Of a DNA stretch of 64,000 nt, positions 11,120 to 26,044 are shown one piece after another. The notes beneath the pieces are model-generated. The model ran no database searches. It was not told where the DNA came from and was given only the letters and a program-made list of their open reading frames with translations. The DNA is from Lutimonas zeaxanthinifaciens (GTDB lineage: Bacteria > Bacteroidota > Bacteroidia > Flavobacteriales > Flavobacteriaceae): contig NZ_CP129964.1 in the NCBI RefSeq assembly GCF_030503675.1, positions 930,001 through 994,000 of the forward strand, read 5' to 3'. How positions within the stretch are numbered: position 1 is the stretch's first letter; each line of letters opens with the position of its first letter. Position numbers and translations under genes: made by a program.

Positions 11120-14100
11120 CTATATAACTATTATTTTTCTTGAATGTGTGTCAAGTAAATTAAATAGTTTAATAATGTAAATTCCTTTTGGATAATTTGA
11201 AAAATCAAATTGCTCATTAATAATTTGGTTTTCTTTATATATTGGACTGGAATGAATCATTTGACCATTTAAATTATATATTAGAAGTTTATAATTATTA
11301 CCTAATTTACTCGAATGAAGATTAATAATTCCATTTGTTGGATTTGGGTAAATTTTAAGTTCTAGAGATTGCTCTATAATATTTTCTTTATTATTATTTA
11401 AATTTTTTACTATAGATTCATTGGTCAGGTTCTGTTCGTTTCCATTGTTGAATTCTTCATCATTTGATTCACAGTTTTTTACTGTAATCAAAGTTTGAAT
11501 TGTATATTGAAGTTCATTTCTAGTGTAAGTTAATGTATAGGCAGTTGTTCTTTTTGGACTTATTGTTATACTATTGGAAAAATCTCCTGTAGTCCATATA
11601 TAATTTTCTCCCTGCGGAGCGTTTAATGTGATGCTTTGACCTTGGCAGATTGATTGATCCTCACCGGCATCAGCAGTTATCTCAGGAGTAGGAGGTTGGT
11701 TAACGGTAACCCTTACGGTGTCTTTATCTTCACAGTTTCCGTTTGATACAGTTACTTCATAGGTTGTTGTAGAGTTAGGGCTTACAGTTATACTTTGAGT
11801 AGTTTCCCCTGTACTCCAAAGGTAATTACCTTCACCCGAGGCAGATAGAGTAACACTTTGTCCAGCTTCAATTGTCATATTGGCTCCAGCCCCTGCAACG
11901 GGTAATGGATTTACATTTACAATTACTTCATCGGTATCAGAAGCATTTCCTTCAGACACAGTAACAGAATAGGTATTGGTTTCATCAGGGTTAACGGTAA
12001 TGCTTTGAGTAGTTTCCCCATTGCTCCAAAGATATGTTGAACCACCAGAGGCAGTAAGTGTAGCGCTTTGACCTTGGCAGATTGATTGATCCTCACCGGC
12101 ATCAGCAGTTATCTCAGGAGTAGGAGGTTGGTTAACGGTAACCCTTACGGTGTCTTTATCTTCACAGTTTCCGTTTGATACAGTTACTTCATAGGTTGTT
12201 GTAGAGTTAGGGCTTACAGTTATACTTTGAGTAGTTTCCCCTGTACTCCAAAGGTAATTACCTTCACCCGAGGCAGATAGAGTAACACTTTGTCCAGCTT
12301 CAATTGTCATATTGGCTCCAGCCCCTGCAACGGGTAATGGATTTACATTTACAATTACTTCATCGGTATCAGAAGCATTTCCTTCAGACACAGTAACAGA
12401 ATAGGTATTGGTTTCATCAGGGTTAACGGTAATGCTTTGAGTAGTTTCCCCATTGCTCCAAAGATATGTTGAACCACCAGAGGCAGTAAGTGTAGCGCTT
12501 TGACCTTGGCAGATTGATTGATCCTCACCGGCATCAGCAGTTATCTCAGGAGTAGGAGGTTGGTTAACGGTAACCCTTACGGTGTCTTTATCTTCACAGT
12601 TTCCGTTTGATACAGTTACTTCATAGGTTGTTGTAGAGTTAGGGCTTACAGTTATACTTTGAGTAGTTTCCCCTGTACTCCAAAGGTAATTACCTTCACC
12701 CGAGGCAGATAGAGTAACACTTTGTCCAGCTTCAATTGTCATATTGGCTCCAGCCCCTGCAACGGGTAATGGATTTACATTTACAATTACTTCATCGGTA
12801 TCAGAAGCATTTCCTTCAGACACAGTAACAGAATAGGTATTGGTTTCATCAGGGTTAACGGTAATGCTTTGAGTAGTTTCCCCATTGCTCCAAAGATATG
12901 TTGAACCACCAGAGGCAGTAAGTGTAGCGCTTTGACCTTGGCAGATTGATTGATCCTCACCGGCATCAGCAGTTATCTCAGGAGTAGGAGGTTGGTTAAC
13001 GGTAACCCTTACGGTGTCTTTATCTTCACAGTTTCCGTTTGATACAGTTACTTCATAGGTTGTTGTAGAGTTAGGGCTTACAGTTATACTTTGAGTAGTT
13101 TCCCCTGTACTCCAAAGGTAATTACCTTCACCCGAGGCAGATAGAGTAACACTTTGTCCAGCTTCAATTGTCATATTGGCTCCAGCCCCTGCAACGGGTA
13201 ATGGATTTACATTTACAATTACTTCATCGGTATCAGAAGCATTTCCTTCAGACACAGTAACAGAATAGGTATTGGTTTCATCAGGGTTAACGGTAATGCT
13301 TTGAGTAGTTTCCCCATTGCTCCAAAGATATGTTGAACCACCAGAGGCAGTAAGTGTAGCGCTTTGACCTTGGCAGATTGATTGATCCTCACCGGCATCA
13401 GCAGTTATCTCAGGAGTAGGAGGTTGGTTAACGGTAACCCTTACGGTGTCTTTATCTTCACAGTTTCCGTTTGATACAGTTACTTCATAGGTTGTTGTAG
13501 AGTTAGGGCTTACAGTTATACTTTGAGTAGTTTCCCCTGTACTCCAAAGGTAATTACCTTCACCCGAGGCAGATAGAGTAACACTTTGTCCAGCTTCAAT
13601 TGTCATATTGGCTCCAGCCCCTGCAACGGGTAATGGATTTACATTTACAATTACTTCATCGGTATCAGAAGCATTTCCTTCAGACACAGTAACAGAATAG
13701 GTATTGGTTTCATCAGGGTTAACGGTAATGCTTTGAGTAGTTTCCCCATTGCTCCAAAGATATGTTGAACCACCAGAGGCAGTAAGTGTAGCGCTTTGAC
13801 CTTGGCAGATTGATTGATCCTCACCGGCATCAGCAGTTATCTCAGGAGTAGGAGGTTGGTTAACGGTAACCCTTACGGTGTCTTTATCTTCACAGTTTCC
13901 GTTTGATACAGTTACTTCATAGGTTGTTGTAGAGTTAGGGCTTACAGTTATACTTTGAGTAGTTTCCCCTGTACTCCAAAGGTAATTACCTTCACCCGAG
14001 GCAGATAGAGTAACACTTTGTCCAGCTTCAATTGTCATATTGGCTCCAGCCCCTGCAACGGGTAATGGATTTACATTTACAATTACTTCATCGGTATCAG

Positions 14101-15634
14101 AAGCATTTCCTTCAGACACAGTAACAGAATAGGTATTGGTTTCATCAGGGTTAACGGTAATGCTTTGAGTAGTTTCCCCATTGCTCCAAAGATATGTTGA
14201 ACCACCAGAGGCAGTAAGTGTAGCGCTTTGACCTTGGCAGATTGATTGATCCTCACCGGCATCAGCAGTTATCTCAGGAGTAGGAGGTTGGTTAAATATA
14301 CCTTTGTTTATATAACCGAAAGTATCGTCCCCCCAAACTCCTTCTTCGCCATCAGGAATCCCATTATTATTTGAATCCAATATAATTGTTCCTGAAGGAA
14401 TACGAGGATAGCCACCAACTTCGCTCGGGTCATCTATCAGTCTACCTCCAGATTTATCCGTAACATAATTTATGACTCTTTTTTCCGCATCGTTTCTTGA
14501 AAATGTTCCTACACCACCTTCGCCAAGAATATTACCGATCAATCTTTGATGATCAATAGTTGGAATATTTCTAAGTGGAGTGTTAAATGCTTGAGAAGAA
14601 AGCTGTCTGGAAGAAGCCCTTGATGTATAAGGGGCAACTCCTCCAATCGCATCCCATTCATCTTGATTTGCCGAGTTTCTGTGAGTATTTATATTCCCCC
14701 GTGCAAATGCATTAGCTTCAGAATCAGTGAGCAAAATATCATATCTAGAAAGGTTAATATCATTATTTTTAAAGGCGTAATTATTGATAAAATTTACATC
14801 TGAAGGAGAACTTATAATCATTCCAAAAGAACCATGATTAAACATGACATTATTGACGATTTCAAAAGTTCCTCTTCTACTATTTATAAGAGGATTCCTT
14901 TGATTATTATTTGCAAACAAATTGTTATAATAAGTAAATTTATCAGCTCGATCGCCAACTAAAGAACCCATACTATGAGGAGATCTATACTGAGAATGTC
15001 TAGAATCAGTTGTGTATTCGTGGGTTGAGTACATTAAAGCTTCAGCTATGATGCTGTTTTGGATAGTTACATTTTCGGGATCATACCATGCTCCTATATT
15101 CTCATCAGAGCTCCATAGGACCGTACAATGATCGATTAGAATATTTCTTCCTCCATCAACTGATATGTTATCCCCGACATGGTTATTGTTACTAGTTGCT
15201 CCAATGGCCAATGTTAGACCTCGAATTATAATACCATCTCCTCCTCGAATTTGAATTATTGGACCGGGAAAGTCTCTGGATCCGCGAATTAAAATTCCAT
15301 TTTTCGATGTTTGACCTGCAATATAGATTTGATGATTTCTCGGAGTTCTTATAATAGAATTCGAAACTATTGTACCGCTTAAGCCATTGAAAACAATTAT
15401 TTTAGCTCGACGTGAAGTTCTTGATTCAACAGCATCTTTAAGACTCCCAGGACCGGAGCTGTTTAAATTTGTAACCACGATTACTTCATAATCTTCACTA
15501 AAAGTCCAATTTGCACCAAATCCAGCAGCACCCTCGAATACCGTATTTCCTTGATTAAAAGATTGCCCAATTAGTATTATTGGAAATATACTGATACTAA
15601 TAAAAAGAAGTGACTTTTTTAGCGAAAAATTCAT
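11120..15634 (-). CDS. Giant T9SS-secreted pectate-lyase-like beta-helix protein with tandem Ig/PKD-like repeats (paralog 2)
   Basis: 1504 residues with the same architecture as the 841-residue paralog. A signal peptide (about 1-23) and a right-handed beta-helix (about 25-450; NSSGPGSLKDAVES start) are followed by six nearly perfect 144-residue units, each with two beta-sandwich modules. A seventh, diverged half unit (GENYIWTTGDFSNSI) and a type A T9SS sorting domain (last 80 residues, YPNPTNGIINLHSS and FSNYPKGIYIIKLF) complete it. The helix domains of the two paralogs are clearly homologous but diverged, whereas the repeat units are nearly identical between them. The repeats probably form a long stalk displaying the helix away from the outer membrane. 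Substrate and catalysis are unproven. The next annotated element upstream is a gene-free stretch, so the gene probably has its own promoter there. Confidence 0.88.
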   Translation of the reverse strand: MNFSLKKSLLFISISIFPIILIGQSFNQGNTVFEGAAGFGANWTFSEDYEVIVVTNLNSSGPGSLKDAVESRTSRRAKIIVFNGLSGTIVSNSIIRTPRNHQIYIAGQTSKNGILIRGSRDFPGPIIQIRGGDGIIIRGLTLAIGATSNNNHVGDNISVDGGRNILIDHCTVLWSSDENIGAWYDPENVTIQNSIIAEALMYSTHEYTTDSRHSQYRSPHSMGSLVGDRADKFTYYNNLFANNNQRNPLINSRRGTFEIVNNVMFNHGSFGMIISSPSDVNFINNYAFKNNDINLSRYDILLTDSEANAFARGNINTHRNSANQDEWDAIGGVAPYTSRASSRQLSSQAFNTPLRNIPTIDHQRLIGNILGEGGVGTFSRNDAEKRVINYVTDKSGGRLIDDPSEVGGYPRIPSGTIILDSNNNGIPDGEEGVWGDDTFGYINKGIFNQPPTPEITADAGEDQSICQGQSATLTASGGSTYLWSNGETTQSITVNPDETNTYSVTVSEGNASDTDEVIVNVNPLPVAGAGANMTIEAGQSVTLSASGEGNYLWSTGETTQSITVSPNSTTTYEVTVSNGNCEDKDTVRVTVNQPPTPEITADAGEDQSICQGQSATLTASGGSTYLWSNGETTQSITVNPDETNTYSVTVSEGNASDTDEVIVNVNPLPVAGAGANMTIEAGQSVTLSASGEGNYLWSTGETTQSITVSPNSTTTYEVTVSNGNCEDKDTVRVTVNQPPTPEITADAGEDQSICQGQSATLTASGGSTYLWSNGETTQSITVNPDETNTYSVTVSEGNASDTDEVIVNVNPLPVAGAGANMTIEAGQSVTLSASGEGNYLWSTGETTQSITVSPNSTTTYEVTVSNGNCEDKDTVRVTVNQPPTPEITADAGEDQSICQGQSATLTASGGSTYLWSNGETTQSITVNPDETNTYSVTVSEGNASDTDEVIVNVNPLPVAGAGANMTIEAGQSVTLSASGEGNYLWSTGETTQSITVSPNSTTTYEVTVSNGNCEDKDTVRVTVNQPPTPEITADAGEDQSICQGQSATLTASGGSTYLWSNGETTQSITVNPDETNTYSVTVSEGNASDTDEVIVNVNPLPVAGAGANMTIEAGQSVTLSASGEGNYLWSTGETTQSITVSPNSTTTYEVTVSNGNCEDKDTVRVTVNQPPTPEITADAGEDQSICQGQSATLTASGGSTYLWSNGETTQSITVNPDETNTYSVTVSEGNASDTDEVIVNVNPLPVAGAGANMTIEAGQSVTLSASGEGNYLWSTGETTQSITVSPNSTTTYEVTVSNGNCEDKDTVRVTVNQPPTPEITADAGEDQSICQGQSITLNAPQGENYIWTTGDFSNSITISPKRTTAYTLTYTRNELQYTIQTLITVKNCESNDEEFNNGNEQNLTNESIVKNLNNNKENIIEQSLELKIYPNPTNGIINLHSSKLGNNYKLLIYNLNGQMIHSSPIYKENQIINEQFDFSNYPKGIYIIKLFNLLDTHSRKIIVI
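11628..14290 (-). repeat. Six-copy 432-bp tandem array inside lyase paralog 2
   Basis: GTTAACGGTAAC begins at 11699, 12131, 12563, 12995, 13427 and 13859, exactly 432 bp apart, and the array ends at 14290. A partial copy of about 70 bp (11628-11698) precedes it. The variable positions I compared (for example CCCGAGGCAGATAGAG and TTTGTCCAGC) are the same in all six copies. Exact identity points to recent amplification or continuous homogenisation. Confidence 0.95.
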
Positions 15635-16391
15635 TGAGATTTACTTAAAATATTAATCTTTTTCTTTAACAATTTCATAAATAATTCAATTTATCTGTCT
15701 TATGTTTTGAAGCTGAGTTAGTCCTACAAAATATCGATACCATAAGAAGGACTGAATTAATATCATGCTAAGGCACAACAATTCAATCCAATTAGATCAC
15801 AAGAGATTATGAAAAGATAAAATGAGGGAGTGTAATTCAATCTTGCCTTAGAAAAAAACAAGCACAAAATTTTTTTTACGCTGCAAACGTATTATTAAAT
15901 TCTGGGAAAATTCTGAAGTTTTTTTGTTAAAATAGAAAAAATTAAAATAAAATTTTAAGGTGCTTAAAAAAAGGTATTTACGATTTTTATTTGAATTAAG
16001 TTTTTGTAACTTCTTATATTATTTTATTTGAAATAATGAATGATTACAAATTTAATCATTAAAGGGAAAATTTACATATATAATTTTTTTATATTTGAGT
16101 CGTTATTAAATCTATAAGAGTTCGAACCAAGCTATTTTCCCCTTACTTCTATTAGCTATATTGGACAAAATTTTACATTAAGGGACGAATACAGGTGATG
16201 AGAATTCCTTCGTAATATTCATAAGAATAAACGAATCGAATTTTCATAGTTCATTATTGATTAAGTGACAAATAGCTTTGTGATTTATAAGGGCGAAGCC
16301 GTTAATCTTAAAAAAAATCAAATGTTAAAATTATTATCATTTTTTAAAAAACAAGAAAAACATATTTAGTCTAATCGTGAAAAAGTACAAA
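15635..16391. other. Long gene-free leader region of the polysaccharide operon
   Basis: Very AT-rich divergent spacer with no convincing gene. TATATTTG at 16090-16097 matches the -7 box but lacks a TTG at 17-23 bp. If it is used, the operon would have a leader of about 290 nt. No NusG/UpxY-like gene or invertible-promoter repeat was recognised. Confidence 0.5.
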
Positions 16392-16628
16392 ATGAATTTA
16401 AAACAAGAAATCAAAGAATACATTATCGAAGCTTCTCTATCGGATTTTGACAAGATTAAAGATGAAACTTTAATTTTTGATAATGGATTATTAGATTCAA
16501 TGGGATTGTTATTTCTAATTGAATTTCTTAATGAAAAATATAAAATAGAAGTTAACGATCAAGAGCTAAATCCAAAAAATTTTGAATCTGTCAATAATAT
16601 TGCTGAATTTGTTGAAGGGAAGCTTTAG
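16392..16628 (+). CDS. Acyl carrier protein
   Basis: A small acidic four-helix carrier protein of 78 residues. The motif GLLDSMG (about residues 32-38) is the 4'-phosphopantetheine attachment site with the modified Ser, followed by the usual helix (LLFLIEFLNEKYKIEV). I prefer ATG 16392 (MNLKQEIKEYI). An in-frame GTG at 16377 would add MKKYK. It is the first gene of the operon and lies next to an amidotransferase, a NadE-like enzyme and an AMP-forming ligase. It is therefore more likely a dedicated carrier for an acyl or aminoacyl group destined for the glycan than the fatty-acid AcpP. Divergence from AcpP (no DSLDTVEL) supports this. Confidence 0.85.
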   Translation: MNLKQEIKEYIIEASLSDFDKIKDETLIFDNGLLDSMGLLFLIEFLNEKYKIEVNDQELNPKNFESVNNIAEFVEGKL

Positions 16629-16682
16629 ATATTTATTAAAGTATAGTAATTATTATATTTCAAGGTTTATTGAGTAAATTGA

Positions 16683-18656
16683 ATGTGTGGTATTGTTGGT
16701 TTTTATGGAGATTTTAAAGGTGACAAGACTCATGCCTTAAGATGTATGTTGACTAGAATACGTCATAGAGGACCGGATGAAAGTGGGGTGTTCCTTTCAA
16801 GAAAATGCAGTTTAGGAAGTGTACGATTAAGTATTATAGACTTGGAGTCTGGTACAATGCCGATTTCAAATCAGAATGAGTCGTTGTGGATAGTTTTCAA
16901 TGGGGAAATTTATAATCATAATGAGCTGAGAGAAGAGCTAGTTCATATCGGTTATCAATTTAGTACCAATTCTGATACTGAAGTTATTGTTAATCTTTAT
17001 CAAGAATATGGTCCTTCTTTTTTAAATAAATTAAATGGGCAATTTGCTATCGCAATCTATGATAAGGTCAAAAAACAACTTTTTTTAGGAAGAGATAGGG
17101 TGGGTATTAGGCCTTTATATTACACGCGTTTTAAGGATTCATTTATATTTGCCAGTGAAATAAAGGCTTTCTTAGATATTCCTGATTTTAATTTGTCGAT
17201 TTCTCCCGAAGCAATAAAACAATACTTTACTTTTTGGACTGCATTATCTCCTTCGACCCTTTTTAAAGAAGTGAGTGAAGTACCACCAGGTTGTTTTATG
17301 TTAATTAGTGAAGATGGGAATCAAATTGAGAGATACTGGAAATTAACTATTCCAAGACAAGGAGAACATACTTTTAAGGATTTGGATGAAGCTACATCGG
17401 AATTTGAAAAATTATTTACCAGTGCCGTTGAATTAAGACTCAGAGCGGACGTTCCCGTTGGGGCATATTTGAGCGGAGGTATTGATTCTAGTATAACAAC
17501 TTCGTTTATAAAGAAAATCAATCCATCTAATCTTAATACATTTTCAATTGGGTTTGATGAAAAAGAATTTGATGAATCTTCTTATCAAAAAATAGCTTCT
17601 GATTACTTTGGCACAAAACATTCGAGTGTCATATGTAGCTCTAAAGAAATTACAGATGAATTTAAGGAGGTAGTTTGGCATTGTGAATCTCCAATATTGA
17701 GAACGGCCCCGACTCCCATGAAATTACTTGCGAAAAATGTGAGAGAACATAATATGAAAGTTGTAATTACTGGAGAAGGAGCAGATGAGCTTTTGGGGGG
17801 TTATAATATTTTCAAAGAAACAAAAATTAGAAGATTTTGGGCGAAAGATCCGACCTCAAGAATTCGACCAACTTTATTAAGTAAGTTATATCCTTATTTG
17901 CCCCAAATTAAAAATTCAAATAGCAATGTATTGAAATTATTTTTTGGTTATAAATTGAATGAAACCGAATCTCCAATATATTCGCATTTACTTCGTTGGA
18001 ATAATACGAAAAGAATAAACAATTATTTGTCAGAGGAATTGAAAGAATTGCTAGATGGATATGACCCTATAGTGGATCTTATGAATCAATTGGCAGAGGA
18101 TTTTGAGGATTTTGATTATTTGTCAAGAGCTCAATGGTTGGAAATAAATTTATTTATGTCAGGCTACTTATTATCATCTCAAGGAGACAGAATGGCCATG
18201 GCAAATTCGGTAGAAGGAAGATACCCATTTTTAGATCATCGGATAATTGAATTTTGTATGCAACTGTCCCCAGATCTCAAATTAAATGGTTTAAATGAAA
18301 AGTTTTTATTAAAAAAAATGATGAAGGGAAGGATTCCAAATGTAATTTTGGAAAGATCTAAGCAAGCATATCGAGCCCCGATAAGAAGTGTTTTTCAATT
18401 TGATAACTTATCAGAATATCTGAAACGCATGCTCTCTGAGGAAGAAATCATAAAATCGAAAATATTTAGCATAGGTCACGTCACTAAACTATTGGATAGG
18501 ATGACAAATTATCAACGAATATCTGAAATTGATAATATGGCTCTTACAGGAATTCTTTCGATACAGATATTAAATGACCTTTTTATAAATAAATCAATTC
18601 CTAAATTGAATGAGGATGATTTGTTAAATCTAGATAAATTAATTATTGAATCTTAA
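16683..18656 (+). CDS. Asparagine synthase-like glutamine amidotransferase
   Basis: 657 residues with the full AsnB architecture. An N-terminal Ntn amidotransferase domain starts with MCGIVGF (Cys2 is the nucleophile after Met removal) and includes RHRGPDESG and FNGEIYNH. An ATP-pyrophosphatase synthase domain carries the PP-loop LSGGIDSS near residue 263 and EGADELLGGY near 365. In polysaccharide loci this family (for example WbpS and WbtH) is thought to amidate uronic acids or related carboxylates rather than aspartate. It lies 54 bp after the ACP gene and 11 bp before the NadE-like gene, so it is co-transcribed. True asparagine synthesis cannot be excluded from sequence alone, but the context argues for glycan or ACP-linked substrate amidation. 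Confidence 0.87.
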   Translation: MCGIVGFYGDFKGDKTHALRCMLTRIRHRGPDESGVFLSRKCSLGSVRLSIIDLESGTMPISNQNESLWIVFNGEIYNHNELREELVHIGYQFSTNSDTEVIVNLYQEYGPSFLNKLNGQFAIAIYDKVKKQLFLGRDRVGIRPLYYTRFKDSFIFASEIKAFLDIPDFNLSISPEAIKQYFTFWTALSPSTLFKEVSEVPPGCFMLISEDGNQIERYWKLTIPRQGEHTFKDLDEATSEFEKLFTSAVELRLRADVPVGAYLSGGIDSSITTSFIKKINPSNLNTFSIGFDEKEFDESSYQKIASDYFGTKHSSVICSSKEITDEFKEVVWHCESPILRTAPTPMKLLAKNVREHNMKVVITGEGADELLGGYNIFKETKIRRFWAKDPTSRIRPTLLSKLYPYLPQIKNSNSNVLKLFFGYKLNETESPIYSHLLRWNNTKRINNYLSEELKELLDGYDPIVDLMNQLAEDFEDFDYLSRAQWLEINLFMSGYLLSSQGDRMAMANSVEGRYPFLDHRIIEFCMQLSPDLKLNGLNEKFLLKKMMKGRIPNVILERSKQAYRAPIRSVFQFDNLSEYLKRMLSEEEIIKSKIFSIGHVTKLLDRMTNYQRISEIDNMALTGILSIQILNDLFINKSIPKLNEDDLLNLDKLIIES

Positions 18657-18667
18657 AAGTTAACATA

Positions 18668-19648
18668 ATGAACAATAATGAACGTAAAAAATTTTCTCGG
18701 GATATATTAAAAATCGAGGATATTGAATTCGTAAGTAATAAAATAGTTGAAAAATTAAAAAATGATGTAAAAAGTCAACTGAATCGTAGAGGTGCTATTG
18801 TAGGTATTAGTGGTGGTATTGATTCTTCCGTGGTATTAGCCCTTTCTGTCAAAGCATTTGGTTCAAAAAGAGTACTAGGGATTATGTTACCTGAACAAGA
18901 TTCCAGTGATGACAGTGAAATGCTGGCAAAGAAACTGGCAGATAAATTTAATGTCAATACGTTAGTAGAGAATATAACATCAGCTTTAGATGGTTTTGGT
19001 TGCTATGAAAGAAGAGATGAAGCGATTTCAAATGTTATTACTGATTTTGACCCAGTAGCTGATAAAGCTAAGATTGAAATTAAGCAAAACATTAATGAAA
19101 ATATTCCGGCAATTTTTTCTATAACTATCATCAAACCAGATGGGAAGGTGGTAAGTAAATTGTTACCGGCTAAAGAATATTTGAAAATTGTTGCTTCGAC
19201 CAATTTTAAGCAAAGAAGTAGAGCCTGTATGTTATATTATCATGCAGAATGCCTACATTATGCCGTAATTGGAACGCCAAATAAGCATGAAGTAGAGCAA
19301 GGTTTTTTTGTAAAACATGGCGATGGTGCTGCTGATGTCATGCCGATTGCTGGCTTATATAAAACTCAAGTATATCAATTAGCCAAATATTTAGGTGTTC
19401 CGCAGGAAATTATTGATAGAACTCCCACAACAGATACATATACCGCCGAGCAGACCCAAGAAGATTTCTTTTATCAAATGCCTTTTGAAGAGATGGATTT
19501 AATTTGGTATGGTTGGGAAAATGGATATTCCGAGGAAGAGGTTGCTCCAGTAATGGGAAAAACAGTTACGGAAATTAAAAACATATATAAAAATTTTGAA
19601 AGAAAGAGAAAAACTACTGATTATTTGAGGATGAGGCCAATTTTTTAA
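18668..19648 (+). CDS. NAD synthase (NadE)-like ATP-pyrophosphatase enzyme
   Basis: A 326-residue member of the adenine-nucleotide alpha-hydrolase (N-type PP-loop) superfamily. GISGGIDSSVVLAL near residue 47 is the PP-loop. GTPNKHEVEQGF, KHGDGAADVMPIAGLYKTQV and PTTDTYTAEQTQEDF follow the NadE pattern. The protein is about 50 residues longer than ordinary ammonia-dependent NadE, and there is an inserted segment (about 117-175) between the adenylate-binding half and the GTxNKxE motif. It has no glutaminase domain, so it would need free ammonia or ammonia from the neighbouring AsnB-like protein. Location inside the operon suggests a specialised amide-forming enzyme acting on a glycan precursor or acyl adenylate. 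A role in NAD synthesis is the alternative. Confidence 0.82.
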   Translation: MNNNERKKFSRDILKIEDIEFVSNKIVEKLKNDVKSQLNRRGAIVGISGGIDSSVVLALSVKAFGSKRVLGIMLPEQDSSDDSEMLAKKLADKFNVNTLVENITSALDGFGCYERRDEAISNVITDFDPVADKAKIEIKQNINENIPAIFSITIIKPDGKVVSKLLPAKEYLKIVASTNFKQRSRACMLYYHAECLHYAVIGTPNKHEVEQGFFVKHGDGAADVMPIAGLYKTQVYQLAKYLGVPQEIIDRTPTTDTYTAEQTQEDFFYQMPFEEMDLIWYGWENGYSEEEVAPVMGKTVTEIKNIYKNFERKRKTTDYLRMRPIF

Positions 19649-19682
19649 TAAAGATTAATTATGCTGTTTAAAATATTTTAAA

Positions 19683-21131
19683 GTGAACTTATTTGATTAT
19701 TTATTCGAAGACACAAAGGATCTTGAAAAAGATTTTGTTATTGGAAATGGAGAAATCATATCCTATAGTTTGTTGTATGATAAAAGTTTGAAATTCGCCT
19801 CTTATTTAATTGATAAGGTTGGTACGAATCAAAATATTATTATAATCAGTCAAAATTCAATAAACTTGATTATCGCCTATTTGGGTATATTGAAGTCTGG
19901 TAACGTAATAGTACCACTCGACTATTCACTTGAACAAGAAAATTTTAATTTTATTTCATCCAGTATTAATTGTTCGCTGTTAATCTGCAGCAGCAAAGTA
20001 AGTAAAAATTTAGATTTAAATAATATTGATTATTTAATAGAAGATGAATTGATTAATCTGATTGCTGATCAAGAAATCCGGAAATTTCAGAATGATTTTG
20101 TTTCGGACAGATTGGCGGAAATAATTTTCACTTCTGGATCGACTGGAAAGCCCAAGGGAGTAATGTTATCCCATCAAAATATTATTTCAAATACAGATTC
20201 AATATTAAAATATCTGAGACTTAATAGAGATGATATAGTATTAGTCGTATTACCCTTTTATTACTGCTTCGGTCTGTCTTTACTGCATTCTCATTTAAAG
20301 GTTGGCGGTCAAATAGTATTAAATAATTCATTCATGTTTTTAAGTACAGTGATAAATGATCTGAAAGAATTCAATTGCACAAGTTTTTCTGGTGTTCCTA
20401 GCCATTATCAAATGTTGTTAAAAAAATCAAAAACCTTTAAGAATTGTTCTTTTCCATCTTTAAAATATGTTACTCAGGCAGGTGGGAAGCTACATGATAA
20501 TTTTATTAGAGAATTTGTTGAGAATTTTACCGGTGTTAAATTTTTTGTCATGTATGGTCAAACTGAAGCAACGGCAAGATTATCATATTTAGAGCCAGAG
20601 TTGGTAATTAAGAAGATAGGTTCTATAGGAAGAGCGATCCCTGGAGTTACTTTGAAAGTTGTTGACAAAAACCTTCAGGAAGTAGAAAAAGGTGAGGTCG
20701 GTCAAATTATTGCTAAAGGAAAAAATATAATGAAGGGTTATTTTAAAGACCCACAGTCTACCGATTTAAGCTTAAGGGATGGCTGGCTGATAACTGGAGA
20801 TTTGGCAAGAGTGGATGGAGAGGGTTTTATATATATAGTTGGAAGAGAAAAAGAAATTATTAAAGTTGGAGGTAAAAGAGTTAGCCCAAAGGAGATAGAA
20901 TCCGTTATTATGAAAGTTTCTGGAGTAATAGACTGCTCGATAGAAGCTATTGATGATGATGTCTTGTCTGAAGGAATCAAAGCAGTTGTAGTTCGAGATA
21001 AGAACGTTAATGATCAAAATTTAAAAAGAGCAATTCTAAGAAGATGCAAAACCGAACTTTCGATATATAAAATACCAAAGGTTTTTGAGTTTACAGACGT
21101 ATTGATTACAAAAGTATCAGGAAAAAAATAA
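19683..21131 (+). CDS. AMP-forming acyl/aryl-CoA synthetase-like ligase (ANL superfamily)
   Basis: 482 residues. The adenylate-forming core motifs are visible: FTSGSTGKPKGVMLSH (about 149-164, P-loop), YGQTEAT near 291, ITGDLARVDGEGFIYIVGR near 370 and the C-terminal lysine motif KVSGKK as the final residues. The enzyme should activate a carboxylic acid as acyl-AMP and load it on the pantetheine arm of CoA or, given the context, on the ACP encoded first in the operon. The start is GTG 19683 (MNLFDYLFED). The gene follows the NadE-like one after 34 bp. A flavobacterial fatty-acid CoA ligase is the trivial alternative, but the short length and operon position favour a dedicated ligase. Confidence 0.86.
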   Translation: MNLFDYLFEDTKDLEKDFVIGNGEIISYSLLYDKSLKFASYLIDKVGTNQNIIIISQNSINLIIAYLGILKSGNVIVPLDYSLEQENFNFISSSINCSLLICSSKVSKNLDLNNIDYLIEDELINLIADQEIRKFQNDFVSDRLAEIIFTSGSTGKPKGVMLSHQNIISNTDSILKYLRLNRDDIVLVVLPFYYCFGLSLLHSHLKVGGQIVLNNSFMFLSTVINDLKEFNCTSFSGVPSHYQMLLKKSKTFKNCSFPSLKYVTQAGGKLHDNFIREFVENFTGVKFFVMYGQTEATARLSYLEPELVIKKIGSIGRAIPGVTLKVVDKNLQEVEKGEVGQIIAKGKNIMKGYFKDPQSTDLSLRDGWLITGDLARVDGEGFIYIVGREKEIIKVGGKRVSPKEIESVIMKVSGVIDCSIEAIDDDVLSEGIKAVVVRDKNVNDQNLKRAILRRCKTELSIYKIPKVFEFTDVLITKVSGKK

Positions 21132-21211: not shown

Positions 21212-22027
21212 ATGAAGTTAAGATTATTACATATTAGTTTTATGTTTTTATTAATTATGGGATGCAGCAATATGAAAGAAGAAACAACTGAGGAAAAAAT
21301 AAACTATAGAAAAATGTATTTGTCCAAGAAAAAGTTAGCATCAAAAAGAATATTTTTTGGGCATCAATCAGTTGGTTCTAATATCATAGATGGACTCTTA
21401 ACTGAGATGAAGAAAAATCCTTCTGAAAAGTTAAAGCTAATCTCAACGGAGATGCTAAGTATCAGAGAAAATGATAACGGTGTCTTTGTGCATAAGGAAA
21501 TTGGTAAAAATGGGGATCCAATGTTAAAAATTAATGATTTTGTTTCTGTAGTTGAATCCGGAGTAGGTGATAAAGTAGAGTTTGCTGGTTTAAAATTTTG
21601 TTATGCTGATTTTACTTCAAGTACTGATATTAATAAGATATTTCTTTACTACAAAGAAAAAATGTCAATGCTTGAAAAAAAGTATCCAAATTTATCTATC
21701 ATACATTTTACTGTGCCATTGAGGACCGTTCAGGGGGGGCTCAAAGGCAGTATGAAACGTTTTCTAGGAAAAGATACTGGTATTAAAAATAATAGAGTTA
21801 GAAATGATTTTAATCATTTGCTTAGGGAGGAATTAGAAAGTAGCAAAATCTTTGATTTGGCTAGAATAGAATCTACCTTCGATGACGGCTCAAGAAATTT
21901 TATTTTGAGTAAAGGCGATACTATTTATGCATTGGTACCTGAATTTAGTATTGATGGTGGTCACTTATCGGAAAAAGGTAAAAATATTGTTGCCAGAAAG
22001 TTTATTTTATTTTTCGAAAACCTATAG
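21212..22027 (+). CDS. Lipoprotein with SGNH-hydrolase-like signature
   Basis: 271 residues with a lipoprotein signal peptide (LLIMGC, lipidated Cys18). FFGHQSVGSNI near residue 48 resembles an oxyanion/nucleophile block with a conserved Ser. SIDGGHLSEKGKNIVA near 247 has the Asp-x-x-His arrangement of block V of SGNH/GDSL esterases. HFTVPLR near 168 lies at the end of a predicted core strand. By analogy it may remove or transfer acetyl or acyl groups on the glycan in the periplasm or at the outer membrane. The family assignment rests on these motifs only. The next gene starts 1 bp after its stop, so it is firmly part of the operon. Confidence 0.68.
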   Translation: MKLRLLHISFMFLLIMGCSNMKEETTEEKINYRKMYLSKKKLASKRIFFGHQSVGSNIIDGLLTEMKKNPSEKLKLISTEMLSIRENDNGVFVHKEIGKNGDPMLKINDFVSVVESGVGDKVEFAGLKFCYADFTSSTDINKIFLYYKEKMSMLEKKYPNLSIIHFTVPLRTVQGGLKGSMKRFLGKDTGIKNNRVRNDFNHLLREELESSKIFDLARIESTFDDGSRNFILSKGDTIYALVPEFSIDGGHLSEKGKNIVARKFILFFENL

Positions 22028-22028
22028 T

Positions 22029-23060
22029 ATGAAAGAATTAATAAGAAGGATTGAAGAGTCGGATTTTGAACATGCAGCCCCTTTGTTCAAAGTTCCTTAT
22101 AAAAAGAGTATTGAAGAATTGAAATGGCTTTTTAAGGATCCAAATGATAAGAATGAATATAATGGATTCGTTTGTATTAGTAATGAAGAGTTGGTTGGAG
22201 TAATCGGGTATATTGATGTCAGCTATACAGACGGAACAGTTGATTTTAAGGGAGTAATACCAATGTCGTGGCAATTGAAGGAAAATTATAAGGGTTTTGC
22301 AGGAATCTTACTTTTCAAAAAAGTTTTAGCTTTAGGAGATTTCTGTATTGCAATTGCTGGTAGTAGTACTGCTAAACAAATGTATCCAATGTTTAAATAC
22401 AGGTATTTATTTAATATTTATGAATACTATAAGGTGTTAGATTTAAAATCTTCATTTTGCCTAATTACTAAAAAAGGTAGGTTAAAATCATTGGCCAAAT
22501 TATTATGGTTGAATACTGCAAGATTTCGTATTAACATAAAATTTAAAAAAACAAGAAATGTTGTATTTGAAAATTATAATCAAACGGAAGAACAAATAAA
22601 AGAAATCAATTATGGAATTATAAGAAGAAAATTAAACAAAAATCAAATTAATTGGTTTTTGAAATGCCCTTTGGTGAAGTCTATGGCATTTAAAGTATAT
22701 TTAGATGAGTCATTTTTAGGATATGTGATACTTTATATAAAAAGTCAAGATGGATGTAATCAAGGAAGAATTGTGCACTTACCTTATGTCGATGATAAAC
22801 ATCTCTCTTATGAAATTTTTCATAAATGTTTGCAAATACTCAAAAAACATAAATGTTCATTTGTCTCATCATGGCTTCACCATGATGCTCATAGTAGTTC
22901 CTTGAAAAATCACGGTTTTAAAAGAATAAAAAACAAAATCATTCCTTTTTACTTAAAAGACAAAAGAAATGTTTTTGAAAATCATAATCTAGATAACTGG
23001 TTTTTGCAATATTCCGAAGGAGATAAAGCTTATAGAAATTTTCCATTTTTTTCAGTCTAA
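22029..23060 (+). CDS. GNAT-fold N-acyltransferase-like protein
   Basis: I place the start at ATG 22029, two bases after the previous stop, giving 343 residues; an open frame extends further upstream but overlaps the preceding gene. The first 170 residues look like a GNAT domain. ELVGVIGYIDVSY is the beta4-beta5 region, SWQLKENYKGFAGILLFKKVL is the acetyl-CoA-binding loop and helix with a degenerate glycine motif, and SSTAKQMYPMFKYR follows. The second half (about 195-343) may be a second, degenerate acyltransferase-like domain. A GNAT in such an operon commonly acylates an amino sugar. It could accept the acyl group from the ACP made by the first gene of the operon, but that link is inference. 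Confidence 0.7.
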   Translation: MKELIRRIEESDFEHAAPLFKVPYKKSIEELKWLFKDPNDKNEYNGFVCISNEELVGVIGYIDVSYTDGTVDFKGVIPMSWQLKENYKGFAGILLFKKVLALGDFCIAIAGSSTAKQMYPMFKYRYLFNIYEYYKVLDLKSSFCLITKKGRLKSLAKLLWLNTARFRINIKFKKTRNVVFENYNQTEEQIKEINYGIIRRKLNKNQINWFLKCPLVKSMAFKVYLDESFLGYVILYIKSQDGCNQGRIVHLPYVDDKHLSYEIFHKCLQILKKHKCSFVSSWLHHDAHSSSLKNHGFKRIKNKIIPFYLKDKRNVFENHNLDNWFLQYSEGDKAYRNFPFFSV

Positions 23061-23136: not shown

Positions 23137-24453
23137 ATGAAAAAGTTCAAAATTGACAAAAAGCTCTTTTATCAAATATTAGTCCTTGCTTCGGCTACCC
23201 TTGTTGCAAAAGGCATGTCTTTTTTTAAAGAACTCTTTGTAGCATATTTCTTTGGCACATCTAGAGATTTAGATTTGTTATTGTACGCTTTGACTTTTAC
23301 AAGCACAATGTATTTTATTATTAATGGCGCTATGTCAAGCACGGTTGTTCCAAATTTTCTGAAATTTAAGAATAAAGATGAATCACAGAAGAATAATTAT
23401 TTGGCATCTGTATATTCGATCTTCTTAGGTATCTCGTTGCTGCTATGTACATCACTGTATTTCTTTCATGTTGAATTGATCCACCTTATAGCTCCGGGTT
23501 TTACTCCTGATGAATTACTCGATATCTCGAGTTTTATGAAGTATTTTATTGTCTATTTGTTTTTATCTTTTTTGGGTTCTTTATTTCAGATTATTTTGAA
23601 TGCAAATAAAAGATTTTTTGTCTCTGGTTTGTTAATGTCGATCACACCTTTTTTTATAATCTTAATGATTCTAATTTTTAATAAGTTAGGTGTGATATCA
23701 ATTGCATTTGGAATAGTTTCTGGAGCTTTTATCCAATATATTATAGCTTTTATAGTGATCAGGGCTGAGTTTAATTTGAATCTAATAAACTTAGAAGATC
23801 TAAGATCAAAATATGGTGACATATTTCATAATTTCAGCATCCTTTTTTTTGGTGGATTGTTTATTGGTTTGATAGATCTTACTGATCAATCCTTTGCATC
23901 TTTAGCTGGAGATGGAGGAATTTCATCTTTAAACTATGGAAACAAGATTCCCGCTCTTTTTGATGGTCTATTTGTAACGGTACTTGGAACCGTTTTATTT
24001 TCAACATTTTCTGAAAATATTGCTAAACGAAGAAATAATGCGAATAAAGTACTTTTTGTAAAAACAATTAAAATGGTATTAGTTTTTGGGGTTATTTTTT
24101 CTCTTATCCTTGTAATGATATCTAAGGATTTGATTTCTATTGTTTTTGAAAGAGGAGCTTTTAATCAGGAATCGGTATTAAAAGTTTATCCAATTCAATC
24201 GGCATTATTTTTGAGGCTTCCATTCAGTGCAATGGCAATTATTTCTGCGCGTATGATGAATTCATATGAATTAAATAAGGCCATGTTAATGATAAATATT
24301 ATTAGTTTTTTTTTAAATGCTGCATTGGATTTTATTTTGATAAAGAAATTTGGAGTAGTAGGTATAGCATTTGCAACTTTATTGACCTACATCTGGTCGG
24401 CAAGTTTGAACTACATTGTTGTAATTAGACATTTTAAAAGTAAATCGATATGA
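23137..24453 (+). CDS. MurJ/Wzx-type lipid-linked oligosaccharide flippase (MVIN family)
   Basis: 438 residues with about 12-13 hydrophobic helices and the features of the MOP superfamily, MVIN branch. The N-terminal helices contain ATLVAKGMSFFKELFVAYFFGTS, which is like the MurJ pattern of G-x-x-KELxxAxxFGxS. Later come FERGAFNQESV and an arginine in SARMMNSYELNKAM, matching the MurJ FxRGxF loop. In a glycan operon it most likely flips the undecaprenyl-linked repeat unit across the inner membrane. The housekeeping lipid II flippase would be expected elsewhere in the genome. Its stop codon overlaps the next start by 4 bp (ATGA), showing translational coupling to the GT4 gene. Confidence 0.83.
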   Translation: MKKFKIDKKLFYQILVLASATLVAKGMSFFKELFVAYFFGTSRDLDLLLYALTFTSTMYFIINGAMSSTVVPNFLKFKNKDESQKNNYLASVYSIFLGISLLLCTSLYFFHVELIHLIAPGFTPDELLDISSFMKYFIVYLFLSFLGSLFQIILNANKRFFVSGLLMSITPFFIILMILIFNKLGVISIAFGIVSGAFIQYIIAFIVIRAEFNLNLINLEDLRSKYGDIFHNFSILFFGGLFIGLIDLTDQSFASLAGDGGISSLNYGNKIPALFDGLFVTVLGTVLFSTFSENIAKRRNNANKVLFVKTIKMVLVFGVIFSLILVMISKDLISIVFERGAFNQESVLKVYPIQSALFLRLPFSAMAIISARMMNSYELNKAMLMINIISFFLNAALDFILIKKFGVVGIAFATLLTYIWSASLNYIVVIRHFKSKSI

Positions 24454-25529
24454 AAGTATTGTTCTTAATAAGTAAGTTGAATTTAGGCGGAGCCGAGAGA
24501 GTGCTGAGTACCCTCTCCAATTATTTGTGCCAGAATGGAGAATTAAGAATTCTAATTGCGACATATAATAACATTGAAAAGGATCTTTATCCAATTGACT
24601 CTCGAATTAAAAGAATTAATTATGGAGGTGATATTGTTGAGGGTAATTTCTCAAAGTTAATTTATAGAATGAATAGAATGAAAGACCTTCGTAATTTGGT
24701 TAAAGTTGAAAATCCTGATATTGTAATTCCTCTTATTTGGAAAATGAATTTGGAAACAATTTTAGCTTTAATTGGAATGAAAATAAACATAGTAGTGTGC
24801 GAGCATAACAATTACTACCAAATCAAATCTAAATTGATTAGAACTTGGAGGTTATTTTTATATCAATTTGCAAATAAAGTTATCTTATTAACACATAGGG
24901 ATGCTGATATTTACGAGCAATATCTTAACAATGTTAGTGTTATTCCCAACCCTATATTTCTCAATATACCACCAAAAAAATACAATAGAGAAAAAAGAAT
25001 TTTGTGTGCGGGAAGACTTTCGAAAGTGAAGCAGTTTGATCATACAATTTTTGTTTTTAGTGAAATATTAAAAACTCACCCCACTTGGCGATTAAGTATT
25101 GCTGGTGATGGTCCGGAACTCAATAAACTTAAAGAATATGCCAGATTGCTAAAAGTAGAGAGTAAAGTAGATTTTCTTGGAAATGTGGTAGATATGAGTA
25201 AAATTTATAAAAGTCACAGTATATACGTTTTATCTTCAGAATATGAAGGATTCCCAATGGTCTTAGGAGAGGCAATGCTCTGTGAAATGTCGGTTATAAG
25301 TTACGATTGCCCAACAGGGCCATCAGAAATGATTGAAGATGGAGTTTCTGGAATTTTAGTGGAGCATAATAATAAACTAGAATTAATCAATAGTGTCTTA
25401 AAAATTATAGAGGATGATGAATTACGTGAAAAAATGGGTTATAATGCAAAAATAAAAATGGAGGAATTTTCAATTTCGAAAATTGGATCAAAGTGGGAAG
25501 ATTTAATAAATGAATTTGATAAAAAATGA
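24450..25529 (+). CDS. Glycosyltransferase family 4 (first of three)
   Basis: 359 residues with a GT-B fold. The N-terminal Rossmann half starts with the glycine-rich SKLNLGGAERVLSTLS. The C-terminal half carries ILCAGRLSKVKQFD (near 185), SIAGDGPELNKLK, and the EYEGFPMVLGEAM segment (near 266) with the E-x7-E nucleotide-sugar-binding signature, followed by PTGPSEMIEDG. The cytosolic enzyme adds one sugar to the lipid-linked repeat unit; donor and linkage are not predictable. It overlaps both neighbours by 4 bp. Confidence 0.9.
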   Translation: MKVLFLISKLNLGGAERVLSTLSNYLCQNGELRILIATYNNIEKDLYPIDSRIKRINYGGDIVEGNFSKLIYRMNRMKDLRNLVKVENPDIVIPLIWKMNLETILALIGMKINIVVCEHNNYYQIKSKLIRTWRLFLYQFANKVILLTHRDADIYEQYLNNVSVIPNPIFLNIPPKKYNREKRILCAGRLSKVKQFDHTIFVFSEILKTHPTWRLSIAGDGPELNKLKEYARLLKVESKVDFLGNVVDMSKIYKSHSIYVLSSEYEGFPMVLGEAMLCEMSVISYDCPTGPSEMIEDGVSGILVEHNNKLELINSVLKIIEDDELREKMGYNAKIKMEEFSISKIGSKWEDLINEFDKK

Positions 25530-26044
25530 GATTAGTTGATTTATTTAATTTAGTAATAGCAAGAATCAATGGGCCGACAAAATTTGCTATTAAAAATGGA
25601 GTTAGTTTAGGTGATAATTGTAAAATCAGGACATTTAACTTCGGTAGCGAACCTTATTTAATAAAAATGGGTAGTAATGTGAGTACTGCACGGGGGGTGA
25701 GTTTTGTAAATCATGATGGAGGAGTAGAGGTATTGAGAAATCTTTACAATGAATTTAAGGATGCAGATCTAATAGGAACTATTGAGATTGGAGATAATGT
25801 ATTTATTGGACTAAACAGTACTGTTTTATACGGATCAAAAATTGGAAGTAATGTTATCATCGGAAGTCATAGTATTGTGAAAGGTGAGTTGAAATCCAAC
25901 AGTGTCTATGCCGGAGTTCCGGCGAAATATATTTGTAGTATTAACGAATACAGAGAAAAAAATTCTAAAAATATTGTTCGCACAAAAGGCTTAACTAATT
26001 CTGAAAAAAAGAAGTATTTACTAAATCATTTTTTTGATAATTAA
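25526..26044 (+). CDS. Left-handed beta-helix acyltransferase (WbbJ/maltose O-acetyltransferase type)
   Basis: 172 residues dominated by imperfect hexapeptide repeats (for example IGTIEIGDNVFIGLNSTVL, GSKIGSNVIIGSHSIV and NSVYAGVPAKYI) that form a left-handed beta helix. The FVNHDGG segment near residue 56 provides the likely catalytic His. The C-terminal GVPAKYI motif is typical of sugar O-acetyltransferases using acetyl-CoA. The gene lies between two GT4 genes with a 4-bp overlap upstream, so it probably acetylates a repeat-unit sugar in the cytosol. Confidence 0.86.
   Translation: MRLVDLFNLVIARINGPTKFAIKNGVSLGDNCKIRTFNFGSEPYLIKMGSNVSTARGVSFVNHDGGVEVLRNLYNEFKDADLIGTIEIGDNVFIGLNSTVLYGSKIGSNVIIGSHSIVKGELKSNSVYAGVPAKYICSINEYREKNSKNIVRTKGLTNSEKKKYLLNHFFDN

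What the first reader, a model, noticed from the sequence alone, without database searches (positions are those of the whole stretch)
16392..21131. ACP / AsnB-like / NadE-like / AMP-ligase cassette heading a polysaccharide operon
Four consecutive genes with gaps of 11-54 bp encode an acyl carrier protein, a glutamine amidotransferase of the AsnB type, a NadE-like PP-loop enzyme and an AMP-forming ligase, directly followed by acyltransferase-like and flippase/transferase genes. Established: AsnB-like enzymes in O-antigen loci amidate uronic acids, and ANL ligases load acyl groups on carrier proteins. Inference: the set makes an acyl or aminoacyl substituent on the ACP, with ammonia-derived amide chemistry, and places it on the glycan. 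I know no described system with exactly this four-gene set.
Basis: partly seen in the sequence, partly recalled or inferred. Interest (0 to 1): 0.72.

Follow-up and report, generated by a model that had tools for sequence, protein, structure and literature searches.

The report
Carrier-protein amide-making gene module
Four genes (a carrier protein, a ligase that probably charges it, and two amide-forming enzymes, one of them a repurposed NAD synthetase) travel together across distant bacteria, in different gene orders and surroundings, and probably build a small amide-bearing group that in this genome is likely placed on a surface sugar chain.

Summary
In detail: ACP, AsnB-type amidotransferase, NadE-like enzyme and AMP-forming ligase lie in one operon-like run. 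They are a conserved module. All four lie within 8 kb in 55 of 64 loci found through the NadE-like protein (one of the 55 has a doubtful ligase). In 395 sampled Bacteroidota genomes, 13 carry the NadE-like family; of the 12 besides our own, 10 have all four, in six arrangements. Of 20 ordinary NadE loci, none has any partner within the 11-16 kb examined. The NadE-like enzyme keeps the ATP/adenylation core but has a different substrate loop; the genome has a separate NadE. The module is also in Sinorhizobium meliloti, where it includes SMb20651/SMb20650; a paper reports that this ligase acylates this ACP. There, and in Winogradskyella, it lies among non-glycan genes, so 'glycan cassette' is only partly right. 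Best reading: an acid is loaded on the ACP, a carboxyl becomes an amide, and a partner acyltransferase moves the group to an acceptor; in loci with one ligase type a PrmC-like methyltransferase may methylate the amide. Product unknown. New variant of a known kind.

The parts
16392..16628 (+). dedicated acyl carrier protein (78 aa from ATG; GTG start at 16377 possible)
   Evidence: Asp-Ser attachment motif in 57 of 57 aligned ACP rows, window included
16683..18656 (+). AsnB-type glutamine amidotransferase; Cys2 glutaminase and SGGIDSS/GEGADE synthetase motifs intact, segment after the conserved Lys reads YRAP
18668..19648 (+). NadE-like PP-loop ammonia ligase with altered substrate loop (PTTDTY..EQTQEDFF) and about 50 extra residues in the middle
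   Evidence: separate ordinary NadE at G000:C1:2851519-2852247
19683..21131 (+). AMP-forming (ANL) ligase, class A; expected to load the ACP
21212..22027 (+). lipoprotein of unknown function, SGNH-hydrolase-like by eye; relatives near the module in L036 (fragment), L044, L080
   Evidence: no Pfam or NCBIfam hit; tblastn; the SGNH and lipoprotein readings are by eye, not tested
22029..23060 (+). GNAT-like protein, candidate acyltransferase that unloads the ACP
   Evidence: start corrected by the L044 homologue; no Pfam hit; weak profile match to the GNAT-like genes near rhizobial modules (probability 50, E 1.6e-4, 158 columns)
23137..24453 (+). MurJ/Wzx-like flippase of the host polysaccharide operon
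25526..26044 (+). left-handed beta-helix (hexapeptide) acyltransferase, alternative transferase
   Evidence: same blast cluster (F37) as genes just upstream of the ACP in L077 and, by blast, L105-L107

Best explanation
The four genes are a mobile biosynthetic module that makes a carboxamide-bearing acyl group on a dedicated carrier protein. Step 1: the ligase adenylates a small acid and loads it on the ACP. Step 2: the AsnB-type enzyme, with ammonia from glutamine, and the NadE-like enzyme, with ammonia, turn a free carboxyl group (or two) of the precursor into amide through acyl-adenylates. Step 3: an acyltransferase moves the group to an acceptor; in this genome probably the GNAT-like gene 22029-23060 or the hexapeptide transferase 25526-26044, the acceptor probably an amino sugar of the polysaccharide built by the same operon. 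Elsewhere the ligase type and the neighbouring transferase differ, so the acid and acceptor may differ while the amide chemistry stays. Shown here: conservation as a unit, altered substrate region in both amide enzymes with the ATP core kept. Reported elsewhere for a homologue: ACP loading. Inferred: amide on the acyl group, order of steps, transferase, acceptor.
For: All four within 8 kb in 55 of 64 loci; of the 9 without, 6 lie close to contig ends and 3 (L081, L104, L106) do not. Eight different same-strand orders among the loci with all four, in Bacteroidota, Chloroflexota and Rhizobiales, so linkage is not one frozen operon. 0 of 20 ordinary NadE loci have partners in 11-16 kb. NadE-like: core residues shared with 29 ordinary NadE, loop changed. 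AsnB-like: glutaminase and synthetase motifs kept in at least 95% of 55 rows, a segment after the conserved Lys changed against the genome's own AsnB. Ligase: Arg just after YGxTE in 61 of 62 ligases, fitting an acid with a second polar or anionic group (the pocket reading is recalled from NRPS/MatB work). S. meliloti pSymB holds one AMP-binding gene and it is this one, hence SMb20650, reported to acylate ACP SMb20651 and not to replace FadD. A PrmC/HemK-like methyltransferase, NPPY in 8 of 8, accompanies 8 of 11 modules with the Asp-type ligase and 0 of 47 (window included) with the Cys type alone; PrmC methylates a carboxamide nitrogen (recalled). Hexapeptide transferases are the commonest immediate neighbour: 13 of 94 neighbour genes at 47 loci.
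Against: No substrate or product is known, and none can be read from sequence. Whether the amide is on the acyl group or elsewhere is not shown. The S. meliloti experiment concerns a ligase of the other type, 37% identical to the window's over 345 residues, and I saw it only as cited in a later paper. 81 of 94 immediate neighbours are not hexapeptide transferases, and many loci have no recognised acyltransferase next to the set. L104 lacks AsnB and L106 lacks a ligase nearby; L081 has the NadE-like gene alone. The methyltransferase is absent from 3 of 11 modules with the Asp-type ligase and was not found with the window's type; in S. meliloti it lies about 11 kb away.
Confidence: 0.55

Rival explanations
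1. Two separate jobs in one glycan: the AsnB-like enzyme amidates the uronic acid of a nucleotide sugar or glycan (as WbpS does), while ACP and ligase supply an N-acyl group; the NadE-like enzyme makes another sugar amide.
For: WbpS (PGN_1234) of Porphyromonas gingivalis is AsnB-like and needed for the uronamide of the T9SS linking sugar, and related exosortase-locus AsnB proteins match TIGR03108 (PMC7468200, passages); the window AsnB-like hits TIGR03108 at 414 bits. The window context is a polysaccharide operon.
Against: The four genes stay together in loci without recognised glycan genes; a uronic acid amidase would be expected to follow uronic acid genes rather than an ACP and ligase. TIGR03108 cut-off 817 not met. 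No sugar dehydrogenase among the 20 window genes scanned.
Confidence: 0.2
2. The module makes a soluble small molecule (signal, metallophore or antibiotic-like amide) released from the ACP; glycan loci are just one place where it landed.
For: Stand-alone operons in several Rhizobiales and between housekeeping-type genes in Winogradskyella; GNAT-like and methyltransferase genes near some.
Against: Sugar transferases, hexapeptide transferases, glycosyltransferases and export genes recur as immediate neighbours, mostly in Bacteroidota loci. I did not search for a thioesterase or an exporter.
Confidence: 0.17
3. Ordinary metabolism: a spare NAD synthetase, a spare asparagine synthetase and a fatty-acid ligase/ACP pair happen to be neighbours.
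For: Automatic annotations in public records are names of this kind.
Against: Conserved linkage in shuffled orders, control loci, a separate NadE and AsnB in the genome, altered substrate regions, SMb20650 unable to replace FadD.
Confidence: 0.05

Closest known systems
Exosortase A (XrtA/PEP-CTERM) exopolysaccharide gene set: ligase TIGR03098, amidotransferase TIGR03108
   Same: These models are second-best for ligase and AsnB in the window (275 and 414 bits), and TIGR03098 is the top hit for the S. meliloti, Mesorhizobium AR07 and L102 ligases (458, 481, 444 bits). AMP ligase plus AsnB-type amidotransferase in an EPS setting (that the set also has an ACP and a decarboxylase is recalled).
   Different: Under the curated cut-offs (592, 817); the partner here is a NadE-like enzyme, no TIGR03099 decarboxylase over cut-off; no FemAB TIGR03019; exosortase only a marginal match in a 182-aa frame 91 kb from the window.
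S. meliloti ACP SMb20651 / ligase SMb20650
   Same: Belongs to a homologous four-gene module on pSymB, order ASN-ACP-LIG-NAD.
   Different: The passages I read describe only the ACP-ligase pair; the two amide enzymes are not named there. Asp-type ligase; no glycan genes annotated nearby in strain ml46.
WbpS / PGN_1234 uronamide synthase
   Same: AsnB-type amidotransferase of a surface-glycan pathway.
   Different: Not linked there to an ACP, AMP ligase and NadE-like gene in the passages read.
AsnB-type amidotransferases acting on acyl units, such as OxyD (malonamyl starter of oxytetracycline) and the hydroxyamidotransferase of PDB 7ylz
   Same: Carboxyl to amide on a small acyl building block (recalled); 7ylz is the best solved match of the AsnB-like protein (2e-62).
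   Different: Natural-product setting; no NadE-like partner known to me (recalled).
Butirosin BtrI/BtrJ/BtrK (acyl-ACP side-chain tailoring then transfer to an aminoglycoside)
   Same: Logic: ligase loads ACP, group is tailored on ACP, then transferred (recalled).
   Different: Different tailoring enzymes; no sequence comparison made here.

Membership tests
XrtA/PEP-CTERM exopolysaccharide set | ligase over TIGR03098 cut-off (592 bits) | tested here: not met
   window 275 bits; best in the phylum sample 556 bits, 0 of 395 genomes over cut-off
XrtA/PEP-CTERM exopolysaccharide set | amidotransferase over TIGR03108 cut-off (817 bits) | tested here: not met
   window 414 bits
XrtA/PEP-CTERM exopolysaccharide set | exosortase in the genome | tested here: inconclusive
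   one PF09721 match, 26.2 bits against cut-off 25.7, 182-aa frame, 91 kb from the window start
XrtA/PEP-CTERM exopolysaccharide set | PLP decarboxylase TIGR03099 and FemAB TIGR03019 | tested here: not met
   TIGR03099 best 165 bits of 478; TIGR03019 no match at E 0.001
NAD(+) synthetase NadE | sole NAD synthetase of the cell | tested here: not met
   ordinary 267-aa NadE elsewhere in the genome
NAD(+) synthetase NadE | ATP/adenylation core motifs | tested here: met
   SGGIDS, N179, R183, R185, GDG, K232 shared with 29 ordinary NadE
NAD(+) synthetase NadE | ordinary substrate loop (PTDGLW..RTDED) | tested here: not met
   replaced by PTTDTY..EQTQE(E/D)FF; D256, T257 and Q264 invariant in 35 rows
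Asparagine synthetase AsnB | Cys2 glutaminase and PP-loop synthetase motifs | tested here: met
   55 rows
Asparagine synthetase AsnB | makes asparagine | not testable with these tools
   a separate 562-aa AsnB exists in the genome; the segment after the conserved Lys differs from it
Malonyl-CoA synthetase MatB | ERYGMTE signature (as given in PMC7232532) | tested here: not met
   window reads VMYGQTE
Ligase-loaded carrier protein pair | ligase acylates its neighbour ACP | not tested
   reported for the S. meliloti homologues; not tested for the window genes

The most novel reading that the evidence does not exclude
An undescribed, widely transferred biosynthetic module in which a repurposed NAD synthetase and an AsnB-type enzyme act in series on a carrier-bound acid, making a diamide or, by a second activation of the amide, an amidine; exchangeable ligases set which acid is used, and partner transferases and an amide N-methyltransferase decorate and place it on surface glycans or other acceptors.
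Probability: 0.3. Interest if true: 0.78.

Novelty: new variant of a known kind. Interest (0 to 1): 0.62.

Why it matters
It gives a likely context to an ACP-ligase pair in print since 2009 (SMb20651/SMb20650), suggests that genes annotated 'NAD(+) synthase' in this setting are probably something else, and points to an unknown amide-bearing acyl group that can be looked for directly by mass spectrometry of the ACP or of the glycan in laboratory strains. The ligase swaps and the methyltransferase pairing make testable predictions about the chemistry.

Tried and rejected
Ordinary NAD or asparagine synthesis: rejected because of separate NadE and AsnB genes, altered loops and conserved linkage. 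Malonate as ligase substrate: the MatB signature is absent. Amino acid as substrate of the window ligase: unlikely, since the column that holds Asp in one ligase type (9 of 62) is Cys in 48 of 62, the window included; the meaning of that column is recalled from NRPS work. XrtA membership: cut-offs not met. Window 21927 start of the GNAT-like gene: replaced by 22029.

Led nowhere: PHROGs (AsnB-like, NadE-like and ligase match phage families, nothing on function), viral contigs (no relatives), PDB match for the GNAT-like protein (none), literature searches for the four-gene set (on malonamyl amidotransferases gave listings only). Papers: PMC7232532, PMC7468200, PMC5686131, PMC10315480 and PMC11340318 seen as passages; PMC9386255 and PMC12794305 as a reference-list entry only; PMC1569441 as outline and abstract, with no hit for the terms sought; the others as search listings. 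Ramos-Vega 2009 not held, not seen. Methanosarcina acetivorans, a control genome, is over the NF002048 cut-off; its locus was not examined.

Rows dropped or special: L086 (not of the NadE-like subfamily, 90 bits). L109 has the same sequence as L052 and is counted in the 64. L079 counts among the 55 by score, but its 459-aa ligase lacks the class motifs. L114 and L115 are two strains of S. meliloti; only L115 is in the 64. L123-L128 are not in the 64. Some loci are near relatives (8 are Winogradskyella), so counts are not independent. The 47 loci of the neighbour count leave out near relatives and short contigs. The first control saw less flank for ordinary NadE genes; the wider one was made when checking this report.
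Full report
What is there. Four + strand genes at 16377/16392-21131 encode an acyl carrier protein, an AsnB-type amidotransferase (657 aa), a NadE-like PP-loop enzyme (326 aa) and an AMP-forming ligase (482 aa), with gaps of 54, 11 and 34 bp. Pfam supports all but the ACP over cut-off; the ACP hits several ACP models below their cut-offs and has the Asp-Ser attachment site. Two further genes follow: a lipoprotein (by eye) with no family hit (21212-22027) and a GNAT-like protein whose likely start is 22029 by comparison with L044. Then come a MurJ-like flippase, glycosyltransferases, a hexapeptide transferase, a polymerase-like protein, an SDR enzyme, a Wzc-like kinase and an acyltransferase (the glycosyltransferase, polymerase and Wzc names are read from sequence, those genes were not scanned).

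Conserved as a unit. A scan for the NadE-like protein gave 51 loci. With 12 loci from a phylum sample and two plasmid records, 65 loci were typed with profiles of the four proteins; L086 is not a member, leaving 64. All four lie within 8 kb in 55 of 64 (L079's ligase is doubtful). Of the nine others, six sit close to contig ends (L059, L065, L068, L072, L074, L082); L081 (NadE-like alone), L104 (no AsnB) and L106 (no ligase) are real exceptions. The order ACP-ASN-NAD-LIG is found in 35, and in 5 more with extra or split genes. In the phylum sample 13 of 395 genomes, 12 of 171 genera, carry the family over cut-off, our own included; among the 12 others ACP is present in 12, AsnB in 11, ligase in 11, all four in 10, in six arrangements, two of them with the ligase on the other strand. 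Over all loci eight same-strand orders occur: besides the window's, ACP-ASN-LIG-NAD (L080, L107), NAD-ASN-ACP-LIG (L102, L110), ASN-NAD-ACP-LIG (L111-L113), NAD-LIG-ACP-ASN (L062), ACP-LIG-ASN-NAD (L084, Anaerolineae), ASN-ACP-LIG-NAD (S. meliloti) and NAD-ASN-LIG-ACP (Mesorhizobium AR07). Shuffled order with constant content argues for a shared function. As control, stretches of 11.4-16 kb around 20 ordinary NadE genes hold none of the three partners.

Acquired here. Among 60 genomes of the window's genus, family and order (the own one included) only the window's genome is over the cut-off. The nearest NadE-like proteins are in a Flavobacteriia MAG (79-81%). The cassette has 31.5% G+C and the operon after it 29.5%, against about 38% in stretches on either side. 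This fits horizontal gain, though low G+C is common in such loci (general knowledge).

Not tied to glycans. In the 8 Winogradskyella loci the set sits with a hexapeptide transferase among genes of clusters whose tested representatives are an M1 peptidase, a patatin and RecG. In S. meliloti, Mesorhizobium ciceri, Rhizobium ACO-34A and Shinella it stands among transport, minCDE and other genes without annotated glycan genes (the plasmid gene tables are incomplete). Against this, Mesorhizobium AR07 has an FkbM-type and a polysaccharide-biosynthesis gene some 5 kb off. In many Bacteroidota it is beside sugar transferases, Wzc/Wza-like or glycosyltransferase genes: of 94 immediate neighbours at 47 of the 64 loci, 13 are hexapeptide transferases, 9 bacterial sugar transferases, 4 group-1 glycosyltransferases and 3 export proteins, but also 6 with a type IX sorting tail and 2 RecG.

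The enzymes. NadE-like: 64 rows against 29 ordinary NadE share SGGIDS, N179, R183, R185, N205, GDG, D223, K232, T254 and E265, but the substrate loop PTDGLW..RTDED becomes PTTDTY..EQTQE(E/D)FF; about 50 extra residues lie in the middle region, placed by the aligner in two stretches, and that region has invariant residues of its own (Y113, K135; 35 rows). AsnB-like: Cys2, SGG.DS, GEGADE and K560 are kept in at least 95% of 55 rows; after the Lys it reads YRAP where the genome's own AsnB reads FSDG. Ligase: by one column of the A4 motif, Cys in 48 of 62 (class A), Asp in 9 (class B), Ser, Thr or Leu in 5; 61 of 62 have Arg just after YGxTE. On the NadE-like tree the Cys and Asp kinds interleave, so ligases have been exchanged within the module. 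L036 shows both: a class-B ligase with a methyltransferase upstream, and a class-A ligase frame without its C-terminal part.

A reported test for a homologue. S. meliloti 1021 pSymB has one PF00501 gene and it lies in this module. PMC7232532 places ligase SMb20650 on pSymB, so this is that gene (by elimination), and the adjacent ACP is SMb20651. The paper (passages) states that the two are cotranscribed, that co-expression in E. coli gave acylated SMb20651 (citing Ramos-Vega 2009, which I could not read), and that SMb20650 does not restore oleate growth to fadD mutants. PMC5686131 says the function needs further investigation (passage); PMC10315480 lists smb20650 among down-regulated fatty-acid activation genes, an annotation-based view that differs from mine (passage). 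Together this supports ligase-to-ACP loading and speaks against a FadD-like role.

Clues to the chemistry. A PrmC/HemK-like methyltransferase lies in L036, L061, L072, L074, L116, L124 and L128, and about 11 kb off in S. meliloti, with NPPY in all eight. All eight have an Asp-type ligase: 8 of 11 such modules typed (the nine plus L124 and L128; not L062, L080, L103), against 0 of 47 with the Cys type alone, window included, and none in L125-L127, whose ligases have Gly there. PrmC methylates a carboxamide nitrogen (recalled), which fits an amide product. A GNAT-like protein of about 360 aa lies near the module in L102, L103, S. meliloti (about 10 kb off), L124, L125 and L126; the window's GNAT-like gene matches its N-terminal half weakly (E 1.6e-4, probability 50). 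Five loci carry a glyoxalase/epimerase-like (VOC) gene, in L076 between NAD and LIG (two of the five were scanned with Pfam).

Conclusion. The module most likely makes an amide-bearing acyl group on its ACP and hands it to a transferase; in this genome the acceptor is probably the polysaccharide of the same operon. Shown: the unit, its exchangeable ligase, altered amide enzymes. Reported for a homologue: ACP loading. Inferred: amide on the acyl group, transferase, acceptor. It is related to the exosortase-A exopolysaccharide set but fails its cut-offs and has a NadE-like enzyme in place of the decarboxylase. On checking, the added control and ligase typing strengthened two points; I left the odds as they were.

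Noticed in passing
window 11120-15634 (- strand): 1504-aa secreted-looking protein with seven copies of a 144-aa-spaced repeat (PPTPEITADAGEDQSICQGQS..., counted), a lyase-like front and a sorting-tail-like end (the last two by eye).
   Followed up: partly
L036:9311-10600 and L036:2370-4854: One MAG carries a class-A ligase frame without its C-terminal part, running on into a g5-like tail, next to a class-B ligase with methyltransferase: looks like ligase replacement in progress.
   Followed up: partly
L076:6244-6672; also L063, L071, L106, L107: A VOC/glyoxalase-family gene resembling methylmalonyl-CoA epimerase (recalled likeness) recurs near the module, in L076 inside it; hints at a chiral alpha carbon in the acyl group.
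   Followed up: partly
L123 (Paludibaculum fermentans plasmid): ACP plus related ligase (40%) directly beside a flippase, with acyltransferases and an exosortase-associated EpsI gene nearby, without AsnB or NadE-like matches in the 19 kb held: a reduced form of the set in a polysaccharide locus.
   Followed up: no
control genomes: The archaeon Methanosarcina acetivorans has a NadE-like protein over the NF002048 cut-off; an ACP-dependent module in an archaeon would be notable.
   Followed up: no
L081:8019-8975: NadE-like gene of the same subfamily in a KSB1 MAG without ACP, AsnB or ligase within the 14 kb held.
   Followed up: no
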